64,000 nt of DNA from Arthonia radiata. Its lineage: Eukaryota; Ascomycota; Arthoniomycetes; Arthoniales; Arthoniaceae. The stretch lies in the NCBI GenBank assembly GCA_002989075.1, contig PSQN01000012.1, positions 186,001 to 250,000 of the forward strand. The letters run 5' to 3'. Under the pieces are notes generated by a model. It was given only the letters and a program-made list of their open reading frames with translations, searched no databases and was not told the origin of the DNA. The position numbers and the translations under genes are program-made. Shown here piece by piece: positions 24,630 to 43,966 of this stretch (position 1 is its first letter; every line of letters begins with the position of its first letter).

Positions 24630-25085
24630 CTAAGCAGTTAAGACCTCAAAGTGCTCGGGCGCCTCCATCACGGGGACTGAGCGCTCGTAGCTGTAGTGGC
24701 CGCCAGATGGGTAAGGCTTGGGTGGCTCTGGCTCGTAGCCCTTGGGACCTTTGGGCTCCTTGGGCTCCTTGGGCTCGACGTCACGCTCCTCGACCTCAGA
24801 CTCGACGTGGCGCTTCCACGGGTAGTGGGTGACGGAGTGCTCGGGGCCGTACGGCTCTGGCTTGGTGGGAATACCGCCATAGGACCCTGGCTTGGTGGGG
24901 ACGTTACGCTCCTCGATGGGCGCCTCGGCGTCGATGTGACGCTTCCATGGGTAGTGAGTGACTGAGTGCTCTGGACCATAGGGCTCCGGCTTGGTGGGCA
25001 GGTAGCCTTGAGGCTTGGTGGGGATGGTGGGAGCAGCCACGGTGAAGGTGACGCCCAAGAAGGCGAGGATGAAAGATGCCTTCAT
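24630..25085 (-). CDS. secreted repeat protein, candidate KEX2-processed peptide precursor
   Basis: Single exon, 151 residues. It opens with a signal peptide (MKASFILAFLGVTFTVAA) and then carries two exact copies of a 20-residue unit with a 43-residue period (residues 30-49 and 73-92). Each unit starts PTKPEPYGPEH, ends HSVTHYPW, and is followed by the dibasic pair KR. After each KR comes an acidic spacer (HIDAEAPIEER, HVESEVEER). A third, decayed relative may be GGHYSYERSVP near the C-terminus. Signal peptide, repeats and KR sites are the known layout of KEX2-processed repeat proteins and of alpha-type pheromone precursors. The repeat has no Cys and does not resemble known mould alpha-pheromones (W-C-x...-C type). 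The product would be one or more secreted oligopeptides ending in Pro-Trp. No tailoring enzyme gene (UstY-type, protease or oxidase) lies nearby, so a ribosomal natural-product cluster is not supported. Confidence 0.75.
   Translation of the reverse strand: MKASFILAFLGVTFTVAAPTIPTKPQGYLPTKPEPYGPEHSVTHYPWKRHIDAEAPIEERNVPTKPGSYGGIPTKPEPYGPEHSVTHYPWKRHVESEVEERDVEPKEPKEPKGPKGYEPEPPKPYPSGGHYSYERSVPVMEAPEHFEVLTA
24810..24869 (-). repeat. peptide repeat copy 2
   Basis: Codes residues 73-92 of the secreted precursor, identical in protein sequence to copy 1 and followed by an analogous acidic spacer. Confidence 0.85.
24939..24998 (-). repeat. peptide repeat copy 1
   Basis: Codes residues 30-49 of the secreted precursor. 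It differs from copy 2 at nine third-codon positions within the repeat or its final KR, none changing the amino acid. Confidence 0.85.
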
Positions 25086-28000: not shown

Positions 28001-29598
28001 TCAACCGTTCGGTGGCATTTGCTCATCCAGAAAGTGGAAGCCCTCCACATGATCAAGCGCTTGTTGTTGTAGTATGCGTTTTGTTGGGCTCGGAAGTATT
28101 GGGGATTCCTCGGCAGTGATGTTGACCTGCTTGGGTGATACCTCTGCGCCTGAAGACCCTGTATCAAACACATTCACCTGCTTTGCTGGTGGTGCTCCCA
28201 TTGAAGGGCGCTTAGCAGTCACGGCAGGCTGCTCCAGCAACACTCCCCCCACAGAAACACCTTCGAGATTCACACCAGGCTCTGGTAGCGCGTCTTCAGT
28301 ATTGATCAGATCATCGACACTTCCAGGACCTGCTTCAGGTGCTGGGCCTTGAAAGCTGCCGAGTCGTCGTCGACCAATATCCGCCCTTCGCCCAGCGCAA
28401 CCCTCCGGACCCTGCTTGTGTCGTGATAGTGTTGTGGCTCGACTGAACGTCCGCCGGCATATCTCACACTTATGCGGGCGCTCGCCCGTGTGAATGCGAT
28501 TATGCCGGTCTAAATCGTTGAGCCGTTTGAATCTAGCGTGACAGGTGCTGCAGACGTAATGCTTTTCGGTGCATTGCGACCGCAGATGAAGTCTTAGATC
28601 GTCATCTCGTAGAAAGACCAAATTACAGTGCGGACAAGCAAGATCTCGCAGAGAAGGCAACGCTTGGCCACTAGGATCTATCAAGGCTTCAGGCTCTACC
28701 GAGTCCTGTGGAGCATTTACCGGGCCAGAAAAGAAGCAAAACTGTTCGTCGATGCGGCACCGCTGGCAAGGAGGTTCGGATATGTTACCTGCCTGCCGCA
28801 AGTCGCATCCGACTTTCTTCTTGCGACATGGCGCGCACGCTGTTAACTAAGATAAGCTGGAGTCATGTGATCGTCAAATACGTCGAACGTACCTGATCTT
28901 GCGATGGGCTGGGTCGGAGGCAGCTGCTTCTGCTCTTCAGACAGCTCAATGACCTGCTTCGGATGATCGATCGAGGGGCGTTTGACTGTGTAGAGCTTCT
29001 CAGATGTTTGGGCGGAGTTGATGGGATGAGACTGGCTGCGCGGTTTGATGGCATCCAATGTCTGAATAGACTGAGACGTATAGTAGCCCGAGTCCGCGGA
29101 TGAGATACTATGCGGCCGGTGGAAGAATGCGCTGCTCGCGGCGCTGGCATCCGAGGAGCTAGCATTGCTGGGTCGACTTGCGAGACTGGCATCTGAGAAG
29201 CTAGCATTGCTGGGTCTGCTACTTGGGACACTCAGACTCGATATTGACGGCCGAGACTCCGCAATAGACAGACGTGAATCGGTTATAGAAGGTCGTGAGT
29301 CGATGGATAGTCGTGAGTCTGTGATAGATGGGCGTGATTCTGCAATGGATAGACGCGATTCTGTGATGGATGGTCGTAATTCTGTAATCGATGGACGTGA
29401 TTCCGTAATAGATGGCCGTGACTCTGTGATGGATGCCCTCGAGTCCGAAACAGATAGGCGCGAGTCTGAGATAGATGTTCGTGAGGAAGGAGGCGGCGGG
29501 GGCAATATGCGCTGTCCAAAGGGTCCATCAGCTTTGAAGAGTTTGAGTGGTGGCTCGGCACTGGTGGGCGATGGCGGCGGTCGTTCTTCGCGAGACAT
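28001..29598 (-). CDS. transcription factor with Zn(II)2Cys6 and C2H2 zinc fingers
   Basis: Two exons, 29598..28893 and 28839..28001, separated by a 53-nt intron, give 514 residues. The splice creates the full binuclear cluster: CAPCRKKKVGC, twelve residues, then CQRCRIDEQFC, a textbook C-X2-C-X6-C-X12-C-X2-C-X6-C pattern. Downstream, three zinc-finger-like units follow: an irregular CPHC...HLRSQC, a classic CSTC...HNRIH with linker TGERPH, and CEICRRTFSRATTLSRHK. The N-terminus is Pro-rich and then carries about twelve heptads of the form SRPSITE/SRLSIAE (residues 39-121), followed by more Ser-rich sequence. Both finger classes bind DNA in known fungal regulators, so this is probably a nuclear transcription factor; targets are unknown. 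Without the intron the Zn2Cys6 domain is missed. The C-terminal 170 residues have no recognised domain. Confidence 0.85.
29236..29484 (-). repeat. 21-bp coding minisatellite (heptad repeat)
   Basis: About twelve imperfect 21-nt units encode SRxSIxx heptads (SRPSITE, SRLSIAE, SRPSITD) in the N-terminal region of the dual zinc-finger protein. One unit has lost one codon. Confidence 0.8.
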
Positions 29599-31640
29599 GC
29601 CGTTCAGAAGTGTCTACACGTGAGGCGCGCAACGCTATGACGATCGGATTGCCAAGTCGGGTCCGAAAGACTGCATGCAGACATCAGAAAGATTGTCGCG
29701 ATGAATTCTGGAGGAAGATGCATTCGTGCTGAGGTCGACAGTGATCATGAGGACGGTGAGTGGAAGGAGAGTGTTAGTGAAGGATGTCGACGCTATCTTG
29801 AATGTCTTAGAAGTTGATGGAGATGATGTCCTATTTTAGGGAGGAAGCGCCGGCAGGATCGAGGTTAGTGCGGAGCTTTACCGCAATGTCAAGCAAACAC
29901 CGTGGTGGTCTGGGCTGCGCGCATCTTCTGCAACTCTTCAGGCGACCACTTGCTCTTGAGCCGTTGCCACAGTGCAATCTCAAATGATACAATGAGAACT
30001 GGACAGGCTCCACGTCCGCCGCTACCTCATGCGCCTAGCAGCGTCTGGGACTCGGGACGCGTTTGATTAGCTCAGCTCCCCAGACTTGGCCCCTAGCGCC
30101 ATCTAAATATATGCAGCATCACCGCGACGCCCTCAAGACTCAACCACCTTCTCTGCATGAGCCTTGACCCGGTGCACGTATCCCATAGACGTGCATTGAT
30201 TATACTCATTCGTAGCCGAATGCTTCTGGCGATGGCGACATCATACAGGTTCTCCATTATTGTACAGAGATTTCTACTCTTTCGAGATGGTCTGGCATGT
30301 TTCAACGGGCACATGAAACGCGCCTGGCCTGGAGCAAGAGGGCCGTCTGCAGACTCCACAATTAGCATTTGCTTGAGCAATCTCTATTTCTGCCCAATCT
30401 GGCGCTCTGAGGCCAACGTCATCATGCTGATAGTGCTGCCGATGCTGCTGCCCAGCGCCTAGACTTTGGGCGCAAGTGCTCTCCACCCTTCCCCAAGGCA
30501 CTTCTAGCTGTCTCGGTAGACGTAAGCTGTCCCGCGCTCGTCCACTTGCAGCGACTGCTTGTTGAAAACAACAATGTGTGCAAGGTACGCGAGCCCCAAG
30601 CGCTACTGCGCATGACGAAAGGCGCTCAATGATCAACGCTCAGCCGTTTTGCTGTATGAGCAAATGCCATCTTACAGCACCCAGACCACGTTGCACACCT
30701 GGAAATGAATAGCCATGCTCTCGAACAACATATCTCGTCCTGATTCGAATTTACGAGTGCTTCTAATGGCTGTATGCGACAAATTGCTCGTCACGGTTCA
30801 CGCTTGCTTGAGTCGCGACCCTTCGCTGACTCAGTTGTCCGCATGATCTACTCATGCCGTCCAAGCGCAGTCAGCAGGCTGGCGTCGTGATGCTTGAATT
30901 TGCTCAATTGGAAATACTTGCTGCCATTTTGGCTGCACCTTAGGAGCAACTCCCAGGACGGGTAGTGGCGACAGGTCGCGTAGATTATATCTTGTTTCCA
31001 GAATGCAGCAGCCAGACTGGGAGAGCTCGTGGAATCATCCGGTAGATCTGGCTAGAAAGTTGGTCATCCGGCAGAGATGCCCATATACCATTGCCCACAG
31101 ACTACCAAGCTTGGGTCTGATGCGATCCGAACCGCCTGCAGGACACTGCTATCCGCCTGGGTTCGATCTAACTTGCTGATCCGTTCAATTTCTCTTCATG
31201 CATTGTCCGCCCTACTCACAGCACGTCTCGCTCAATGACTGGATCTTGGAGATTGACGTTCCTGCACCCTAAACGAGATCGGCTTGCAAGTTTTACAGCA
31301 TCATGAGCGGAAGGCTGGTAACAGTGGAGACTACGCCAACATCTAATTGCTTCTTTCACTTGGGTCGACGCGCTCGACATGTTCAAACATACCAATCCTA
31401 TTCATGAACGAATTGCCCAATAACGTCAACGAATGTGAATCCTTGACATAACGCTTAGGCGATGGTCCGTCAGTGAACGCCTTGTAGGAAGAGTGAAAAT
31501 AGTATTGCTTGGGTGGTCGTCGAGATCCGCCACTAGCGAGCTGTCCATGACAGATCGAAATGTAGATATGGCTATCTGACTGGTGACGAAACGCTTCAGA
31601 TGATTGGCTGGGGGTATGGTCGACTGGGGTGTAACGCGCC
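29599..31640. other. gene-poor region
   Basis: Upstream of the dual zinc-finger gene. No recognisable gene, tRNA or repeat. Confidence 0.4.
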
Positions 31641-41817: not shown

Positions 41818-42082
41818 TTAGTTTGCAGACTTGCAATTATAGCTCGAGGTCTCGATTGTTCGATTTTATCTCTGATAATTCAGGCGGTCCTTTATTGTAT
41901 CTTTGAATGCCTTGAAGTAAGGCTGCACGTGACACAGTCGTTTCATCTCGTCTCAGCAATCTGTCAAACGCCTAGATATCCACATATCTATCTTTGTTGC
42001 TCCAATCATCATCTACATCCTCATTCACACGTCGCTAATTCAGCTTCATCTGCACTCCCGCGGCAAAAAGCCCTTCAAAGCT

Positions 42083-43966
42083 ATGGAGTCTCTGCCTCCT
42101 CAAGGTCAGCGATCTCCGCCACGTCAAACACCCGCCGAACAAGGGCCATCTTCGTCAGATCAACCCAGTCGATCACCATCCTCCAAACCTGTAGACTCTT
42201 CGCCCTTGTCACAAGATAACCAGACATCCTCTACCCAGCCATCCTCTACCCAGCCATCCTCTACCCAGCCATCCTCTACCCAGCCATCCTCTACCCAGCC
42301 ATCCTCTACCCAGCCATCCTCTACCCAGCCATCCTCTACCCAGCCATCCTCTACCCAGCCATCCTCTACCCAGCCATCCTCTACCCAGCCATCCTCTACT
42401 CAGCGAACAGATAACTCCCAGCAGCAGAATACGGAATCACAGTCAGAAAGCAGGTCAGAACCACGCAAGTGTTGGATATGCTTCAGCGACGAGACAGAAG
42501 ACACACCACAAAATGCCTCCACCTGGAAAACGCCATGTCCATGTGCGCTCGAAGCACACGAGTCCTGCCTACTTGACTGGATTGCTGACATGGAGGCACC
42601 TCAGAACGGTCGAGCCGCAAGCCCGCAGAAAGAGATCAAGTGTCCACAATGCAAATCAGAAATACACCTCGCAAGGCCGCACAGCCTTGTAGTCGACCTT
42701 GTTGGCCGAGCAGAGAAGGCAGGGGGACAAATGCTGCTGCCCACGGTAGTGATGGGCACATTGTACGCTTTCATGATAGCTGCCTCACACCATGGCGCGC
42801 ACAGTATCAGGATGATTTTCGGCTCAGACGATGCGGAGGCTATCCTTGCGCCCTCGCCATTTGAGTCTGCAATGGAGATACACATGCGGAAGCATTTTCC
42901 CGTGCTTGCGAGCCACTTCTTCCGCCGCTGGAGAGGCTGGCGCGTCGAGTTCGGTCTGCCAATAATACCCGCTGCGCTGGTCGCCTCACGCACGCATTTG
43001 GCCGACACGATTCTGCCCCTATTACCCATTGCGTTCTTCGCTACTCATCCCGATACGTCAGAGCTGACGCAACCGTTCTGGCCTCCGAGCGCGGCTCTGA
43101 CGGTGGTCGTGCTGCCGTACGTGCGCGGCATCTACAAAGAGTACATGGAGCGAGTATGGGGAGAGCGAGAGAAAGCGTGGATGAAAGAGATACACCCGCG
43201 CTTAGGTGGTGGAGAGCGGACGAACGACGGAGAAGGAGAAGATGGAGACACCGATGACGAGGATGATGATGGCGACCTTGTTCAGCTACAGATTGATATT
43301 GAGGAGGACGTTCAGGAAGACGGAGACGGCGATCAAGCTGCGGCGGCTCCACCTGACATTGCGCCAGATCACGCACAGGATCAGGCGCAGGCCGCAGAGG
43401 GAGACCAAGGACAGCGTCAGCCGCCAGACCAGGAGCAGGGCCAGCAACAGCAAGAAGGCCGAGAAGCAGCCGCAGACGGAGCACGGCCGTTGCGCGAGTT
43501 GCTAGACGAAGCGCAGCGAGTGCAAGATGCTGCCGGAAGAAACCGTCAAGGAAACAACAACGGCGAACAGCAGGGTCAAGGACAACAGCAGCAAGGAGAT
43601 CAGGACCAGGAGGAGGGTCACCATCACCACCACCATCGTGTCGACGTCAACCTTCTGACCTACGCTACGAGCATTGCGGAGACAACCGTTGGCGCGCTGT
43701 TCTTCCCCAGTGTATGCAACGTCATGGGGGAAGTGCTGAGGTATGCACTTCCTCCGGCCTGGACGATGGCGACGAAGAAGGAGGGGGGAAGGTTGGTGCC
43801 GAGCGGACTGCTACAGACACGCTGGGGTCGGGGCATTATCGGCGGGTGTCTGTTTGTGGTGATGAAGGATGCGGCGCGAATCTACTGCAAGTGGAAGATG
43901 GCGCAGTCATATCGAAAGAGAAGAGTGCTGAACTACGACAAGAAGCAGGGACGCGTGGTGGAATAG
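42083..43966 (+). CDS. RING-CH (MARCH-type) membrane E3 ubiquitin ligase
   Basis: Single exon, 627 residues. Residues 1-120 are disordered and contain twelve tandem SSTQP units. A RINGv (C4HC3) finger follows at about 130-197: RKCWICF, PCPC, AHESCLLDWI, KCPQCK. These fingers bind E2 enzymes and are found in membrane-anchored ligases. Hydrophobic segments follow (LLPTVVMGTLYAFMIAA, LPIIPAALVASRTHLADTIL, LPIAFFA, LTVVVLPYVRGIY) and again near the C-terminus (GIIGGCLFVVMKDAARIY). Between these two hydrophobic blocks lies an insert of about 170 residues that is acidic (DGDTDDEDDDGD), then Gln-rich, ending in six consecutive His. The enzyme probably sits in the ER or another endomembrane and ubiquitinates membrane proteins, as MARCH and Doa10-like proteins do; its substrate is unknown. 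Confidence 0.87.
   Translation: MESLPPQGQRSPPRQTPAEQGPSSSDQPSRSPSSKPVDSSPLSQDNQTSSTQPSSTQPSSTQPSSTQPSSTQPSSTQPSSTQPSSTQPSSTQPSSTQPSSTQPSSTQRTDNSQQQNTESQSESRSEPRKCWICFSDETEDTPQNASTWKTPCPCALEAHESCLLDWIADMEAPQNGRAASPQKEIKCPQCKSEIHLARPHSLVVDLVGRAEKAGGQMLLPTVVMGTLYAFMIAASHHGAHSIRMIFGSDDAEAILAPSPFESAMEIHMRKHFPVLASHFFRRWRGWRVEFGLPIIPAALVASRTHLADTILPLLPIAFFATHPDTSELTQPFWPPSAALTVVVLPYVRGIYKEYMERVWGEREKAWMKEIHPRLGGGERTNDGEGEDGDTDDEDDDGDLVQLQIDIEEDVQEDGDGDQAAAAPPDIAPDHAQDQAQAAEGDQGQRQPPDQEQGQQQQEGREAAADGARPLRELLDEAQRVQDAAGRNRQGNNNGEQQGQGQQQQGDQDQEEGHHHHHHRVDVNLLTYATSIAETTVGALFFPSVCNVMGEVLRYALPPAWTMATKKEGGRLVPSGLLQTRWGRGIIGGCLFVVMKDAARIYCKWKMAQSYRKRRVLNYDKKQGRVVE
42226..42405 (+). repeat. 15-bp minisatellite, twelve units, in coding sequence
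   Basis: Twelve units of ATCCTCTACCCAGCC (the last with two changes) in perfect frame encode SSTQP. The first eleven units are identical, which points to recent expansion or homogenisation. Confidence 0.95.

What the first reader, a model, noticed from the sequence alone, without database searches (positions are those of the whole stretch)
24630..25085. Candidate KEX2-processed secreted peptide precursor with a duplicated, selection-constrained core
Seen directly: a signal peptide, then two identical 20-residue units 43 residues apart, each ending PW-KR and followed by an acidic spacer. The two copies differ at nine codons, all at third positions, and not one difference changes an amino acid. 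That pattern means the duplication is old and the peptide has been held constant by selection or concerted correction. Known families with this layout are fungal KEX2-processed repeat proteins and alpha-type pheromone precursors. The core (PTKPEPYGPEH...HYPW) has no Cys and resembles no pheromone I know. It may be a new secreted signalling or effector peptide.
Basis: partly seen in the sequence, partly recalled or inferred. Interest (0 to 1): 0.8.

Follow-up and report, generated by a model that had tools for sequence, protein, structure and literature searches.

The report
Two-copy Kex2-type secreted peptide precursor
A filamentous ascomycete gene appears to encode a secreted precursor that is cut into two nearly identical proline-rich peptides; it is laid out like a mating-pheromone precursor but is probably not the mating pheromone, so it is a plausible but untested new fungal peptide of a known general kind.

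Summary
The minus-strand ORF 24630-25085 (151 aa) starts with a signal-peptide-like segment and carries two identical blocks starting 43 residues apart. They differ at nine codons, all silent. The identical block is 21 residues; its flanks have diverged.

The window lies in a 33.5-Mb ascomycete genome. That genome's own alpha-pheromone precursor is on another contig: two WCHRPGQGC copies, also 43 residues apart, identical in the peptide with only silent differences. It is a positive control for the pattern and argues against the candidate being the mating pheromone. STE2, a MAT alpha box and a Kex2 are present.

Four of five Arg residues fit an extended Kex2 motif. Cutting there yields two 32-residue pieces ending PW-KR, two short acidic spacers and a tail. 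None of 16 UstYa matches is on this contig. No relative was found, but no collection of other fungi could be searched.

Verdict: probably a Kex2-processed, non-mating secreted peptide precursor. With two intact copies it falls below the three-repeat threshold of both published surveys. Processing, expression and conservation are untested.

The parts
24630..25085 (-). Whole ORF: precursor of 151 residues plus stop
25035..25085 (-). Signal-peptide-like segment, residues 1-17 (a cut VA|AP is assumed)
   Evidence: hydropathy only
24939..25034 (-). Predicted peptide 1 with its KR, residues 18-49
   Evidence: in-silico cutting
24936..24998 (-). Identical 21-residue block, copy 1 (residues 30-50)
24906..24938 (-). 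Acidic spacer 1, HIDAEAPIEER (residues 50-60)
24810..24905 (-). Predicted peptide 2 with its KR, residues 61-92
   Evidence: in-silico cutting
24807..24869 (-). Identical 21-residue block, copy 2 (residues 73-93)
24783..24809 (-). Acidic spacer 2, HVESEVEER (residues 93-101)
24633..24782 (-). C-terminal tail, residues 102-151, with a possible decayed third module ending HYSYER (residues 130-135, 24681-24698), which has ER in place of KR
   Evidence: third module only weakly supported: 67 of 2000 shuffles score as well

Best explanation
The gene encodes a secreted precursor that enters the ER through its signal peptide. Kex2 cuts it after the two KR sites and probably after the IEER and VEER spacer ends, and a Kex1-type carboxypeptidase trims KR. 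This releases two linear, cysteine-free peptides of about 30 residues that share the C-terminal 18 residues PTKPEPYGPEHSVTHYPW. The peptides act outside the cell in a non-mating role, most likely as a signal to the fungus itself or to organisms around it, with the shared C-terminal part as the active portion. Shown: the ORF, the repeats, the silent-only divergence, the site positions, a Kex2 gene, and a separate mating-pheromone precursor. Inferred: signal-peptide cleavage, Kex2 and Kex1 processing, linearity and the signalling role.
For: Two identical 21-residue blocks with 9 silent and 0 replacement differences, beside flanks with about 5.5 silent and 11.5 replacement differences; run test P = 0.003. 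The alpha-pheromone precursor of the same genome shows the same pattern: its 14-residue peptide has 5 silent and 0 replacement differences and its flanks have diverged. Four of five Arg residues fit the extended Kex2 motif given in a review (passages), against 0.95 on shuffling, P = 0.006; cutting gives two equal 32-residue pieces and spacers of 11 and 9 residues. A gene with S8 and P domains is present. Identity between the copies ends one residue after KR. No UstYa gene on the contig speaks for an unmodified peptide. Codon choice is as biased as in the pheromone precursor (NNC of NNY 0.78 and 0.79).
Against: No transcript, peptide or orthologue evidence. The count of dibasic sites is at chance level (2 against 1.8). 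The two modules are copies, so the P of 0.006 for Kex2 motifs overstates the case. No dibasic site bounds the N-terminal end of the peptides; that end rests on the EER reading. There is no STE13 signature directly after KR (HI and HV), which Le Marquer uses as a hint for hormone-type peptides. The core was picked for being identical, so the core-against-flank Fisher P of 0.001 is biased. UPF0029 in the window is as codon-biased (0.82), so codon bias is no sign of a special gene.
Confidence: 0.62

Rival explanations
1. A proline-rich surface or wall protein, left uncut or cut into structural peptides in the manner of Ustilago Rep1, whose repeats serve binding or assembly rather than signalling.
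For: Pro, Glu, Lys, Gly and Tyr-rich composition with four PTKP and further EPKEPK repeats; Rep1 peptides are Kex2-cut, non-mating, and form fibrils on hyphae (passages); Le Marquer notes that Rep1 has no STE13 signature, like the candidate.
Against: Constraint is confined to a block that ends one residue after KR. The predicted peptides are hydrophilic (GRAVY about -1.1 to -1.5), which does not suggest a water-repellent coat (inference).
Confidence: 0.17
2. A cyclised dikaritin-type RiPP precursor, with HYPW as core in front of KR and a UstYa enzyme encoded elsewhere in the genome.
For: An aromatic core directly before KR, as in dikaritins (recalled); 16 UstYa matches exist in the genome.
Against: 0 of 16 UstYa matches lie on contig C10; 29 other window ORFs scanned gave no UstYa match at E up to 0.01. 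Umemura reports a mean distance of 3.09 genes between KEP and DUF3328 genes where the latter are present (abstract). The whole 21-residue block is conserved, not just four residues.
Confidence: 0.07
3. A second mating pheromone precursor.
For: Same two-copy layout and the same 43-residue period as the alpha-pheromone precursor. Pleosporales alpha pheromones carry PYG[L/M]P[I/V]G, and the candidate has PYGP. One TGAAACG site lies upstream, on the opposite strand at -373, count not tested against chance.
Against: The genome has a Cys-type alpha-pheromone precursor and one STE2 match. The candidate lacks Cys, GQ and a STE13 signature after KR. The two precursors do not align (no BLASTP alignment at E up to 100).
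Confidence: 0.06
4. A chance open frame, not a gene.
For: No transcript evidence and no Pfam match.
Against: Silent-only divergence of the copies, codon score and GC3 of 0.78 against 0.61 in the training ORFs, and a signal-like N-terminus.
Confidence: 0.03

Closest known systems
Kex2-processed repeat proteins (KEPs; Le Marquer 2019, Umemura 2020)
   Same: Signal-like N-terminus, repeated peptide ended by KR, Kex2 in the genome, a peptide in the common size range
   Different: Two intact copies only, against at least three in both definitions; none of the conserved motifs named in the Results text of Le Marquer
Ascomycete alpha-type mating pheromone precursors
   Same: Two copies, KR sites, spacers rich in Glu, silent-only divergence of the peptide as in this genome's own precursor. 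Two-copy precursors are known: yeast MFalpha2 has two (passage)
   Different: No Cys or GQ motif, no STE13 signature after KR, no alignment to this genome's pheromone precursor
Dikaritin-type RiPP precursors (ustiloxin, phomopsin and others)
   Same: Signal peptide, repeats, core next to KR
   Different: No UstYa on the contig; a long conserved block rather than a short core
Ustilago Rep1
   Same: Kex2-cut, non-mating, no STE13 signature
   Different: The candidate has two copies and hydrophilic peptides; no sequence comparison with Rep1 was made

Membership tests
KEP (Kex2-processed repeat protein) | N-terminal signal peptide | tested here: inconclusive
   Hydropathy profile fits; no signal-peptide predictor was available
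KEP (Kex2-processed repeat protein) | Kex2 sites (KR, RR, KK) between repeats | tested here: met
   KR at residues 48-49 and 91-92, in register in both copies
KEP (Kex2-processed repeat protein) | At least three repeats | tested here: not met
   Two intact copies; a third only as a weak trace without KR. Thresholds
KEP (Kex2-processed repeat protein) | Peptides actually released | not testable with these tools
   Needs mass spectrometry
Alpha-type mating pheromone precursor | Cys-type WC...GQxC motif or the Pleosporales PYGxPxG motif | tested here: not met
   Neither is in the peptide (motifs); the Cys-type precursor is elsewhere
Alpha-type mating pheromone precursor | STE13 signature (XA or XP) directly after KR | tested here: not met
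   HI and HV follow KR; DA and EA come later in spacer 1
Dikaritin-type RiPP precursor | UstYa (PF11807) gene nearby | tested here: not met
   0 of 16 matches on contig C10
Rep1-like surface peptide | Peptides bound to hyphae as fibrils | not testable with these tools
   Needs fractionation of the wall

The most novel reading that the evidence does not exclude
The HYPW peptide is the ligand of a non-mating peptide-hormone system in a filamentous ascomycete, built on the same two-copy precursor plan as the mating pheromone but sensed by another receptor; low-copy precursors of this kind would have been passed over by surveys that count repeats.
Probability: 0.2. Interest if true: 0.65.

Novelty: new member of a known kind. 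Interest (0 to 1): 0.38.

Why it matters
The roles of fungal Kex2-cut peptides are largely unknown, and the two published surveys excluded precursors with fewer than three repeats. If this one is real, silent-only divergence between repeats is a way to find low-copy precursors that those surveys pass over. It also gives a defined peptide with exact predicted masses to look for in culture fluid.

Tried and rejected
Mating pheromone: set aside after the Cys-type precursor was found on C6.

Linked dikaritin cluster: set aside, no UstYa match on C10. Pfam scans of 29 window ORFs besides the candidate also gave no UstYa match at E up to 0.01.

Paralogues in the genome: none found. The full protein at E up to 1, the module at E up to 10 and the HYPWKR pattern hit only this gene. 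These searches score only the best candidates of a loose first look.

Relatives elsewhere: none in viral contigs (144 pattern matches, none confirmed), genome contigs (53, none confirmed) or PDB sequences (E up to 1). None of these is a collection of fungal genomes, so the absence says little. Text searches for nine peptide strings found 0 papers (four strings, five); these cover open-licence main texts only.

Identifying the fungus: no 5.8S match; the pheromone string is in no held paper; a search by assembly size gave nothing that I could tie to this genome. Genes around the MAT locus (a REV3-like DNA polymerase, Slu7, an Exo_endo_phos match that I take for APN2 from recall) fit a filamentous ascomycete but name no genus.

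Third repeat: weak support only (67 of 2000 shuffles score as well). Dibasic count alone: not significant. One upstream TGAAACG site: not tested against chance. Four more literature searches gave no closer system.

It was unfinished at eight collecting calls and reported as failed at the ninth.

Full report
WHAT IS THERE. The minus-strand ORF 24630-25085 encodes 151 residues. The first 17 residues form a signal-peptide-like hydrophobic stretch, and nothing after residue 20 is hydrophobic enough for a membrane segment. PTKPEPYGPEHSVTHYPWKR occurs at residues 30-49 and 73-92; nine codons differ between the copies, all silent. The shared block is really 21 residues, because His after KR is common to both. 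It lies in a longer module that aligns by hand over 40 positions with 31 identities. This frame scores +0.29 bits/codon; the other five frames are negative. The codon table came from ten long window ORFs, nine of which have a Pfam match above cut-off; the candidate was not among them.

CONSTRAINT. In the 21 core codons there are 9 silent and 0 replacement changes (dS about 1.1, dN 0). In the 19 aligned flank codons there are about 5.5 silent and 11.5 replacement changes. Fisher P is 0.001, but the core was chosen because it is identical and the flanks were aligned by hand, so this P is biased. The run test, P = 0.003, conditions on the number of differences. Gene conversion would have erased the silent differences too, so purifying selection on both copies is the better reading (inference).

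A CONTROL FROM THE SAME GENOME. The window is G000:C10:186001-250000 of a 33.5-Mb assembly in 16 contigs. A search for the DNA of W-C-x3-G-Q-x-C gave four matches; the pattern read backwards gave three, so the bare pattern is near chance. Two of the four lie 129 bases apart on C6, inside one 190-residue ORF with a signal-like start (by eye) and two WNHWCHRPGQGCGK units, each followed after one residue by KR. By motif and layout this is an alpha-pheromone precursor; Pfam has no match for it. Its two copies also start 43 residues apart. The 14-residue peptide shows 5 silent and 0 replacement differences, and the flanks have diverged. The candidate therefore carries the signature of a two-copy Kex2 peptide precursor, and is probably not the mating pheromone. 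The equal period of 43 is probably coincidence, as the two precursors give no BLASTP alignment at E up to 100. One STE2 match is on C16 and one MAT alpha box match on C3.

PROCESSING MODEL. [quoted passage not shown] Four of the five Arg residues of the candidate fit it: PWKR, IEER, PWKR and VEER. Shuffles average 0.95 (P = 0.006), though the two modules are copies and so not independent. Cutting there, with an assumed signal cut VA|AP, gives 32, 11, 32, 9 and 50 residues. Removal of KR by a Kex1-type enzyme would leave two 30-residue peptides, APTIPTKPQGYLPTKPEPYGPEHSVTHYPW and NVPTKPGSYGGIPTKPEPYGPEHSVTHYPW. The equal lengths fit the model but were not predicted beforehand. If the EER sites are not used, peptide 2 is 41 residues. 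Against the model, the number of dibasic sites alone is at chance level. One gene with both an S8 and a P domain, the mark of Kex2, was found.

WHAT IT IS PROBABLY NOT. No UstYa match is on C10 (0 of 16), so no dikaritin cluster is linked. The window ORFs with Pfam matches (secretory lipase, protein kinase C-like kinase, ChAPs, RPE65 family, GHMP kinase, fungal rhodopsin domain, zinc-finger proteins and others) form no evident cluster around it. There is no STE13 signature directly after KR.

PUBLISHED SURVEYS. Le Marquer 2019 (PMC6339444: outline, Results, Methods and part 1 of 2 of the Discussion read) and Umemura 2020 (PMC7329392: outline, part 1 of 2 of section 6, sections 8 and 13 read) both required at least three repeats, so this precursor would have been left out. 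Le Marquer says that some alpha-pheromone precursors have fewer, and yeast MFalpha2 has two (PMC10057649, passage). The conserved motifs named in the Results text of Le Marquer do not match. Supplementary tables could not be read, so an entry there is not excluded. Stand-alone KEPs are common: 2560 of 7878 had no homologue. In Coprinopsis, six KEP knockouts had no apparent phenotype (PMC9769878, passages).

VERDICT. A probable Kex2-processed, non-mating secreted peptide precursor with two intact copies and perhaps a decayed third. The anatomy is strong; processing, expression, conservation and function are untested. A new member of a known kind. The main gap is that no collection of other fungi could be searched.

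Noticed in passing
L017:1150-1722 (G000:C6:195504-196076): An alpha-pheromone precursor by motif, two WNHWCHRPGQGCGK units, with only silent differences inside the peptide.
   Followed up: yes
L006, L009, L011, L015 (G000:C3:1719760-1723546) and L012, L013, L016 (G000:C7:578483-579499): Groups of neighbouring UstYa matches elsewhere in the genome: possible dikaritin-type clusters, unrelated to this finding.
   Followed up: no
window 42220-42404: A 15-base tandem repeat, 12.3 copies at 98% match, inside an open frame (41933-43963) with a marginal RINGv match.
   Followed up: no
window 29261-29435: A 21-base tandem repeat, 75% match, inside the open frame 28843-29613, next to an ORF with C2H2 and Zn-cluster matches.
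   Followed up: no
L035, L036 (G000:C3:635001-655000): MAT1-1 region: REV3-like polymerase, Slu7 and an Exo_endo_phos match near the MAT alpha box.
   Followed up: partly
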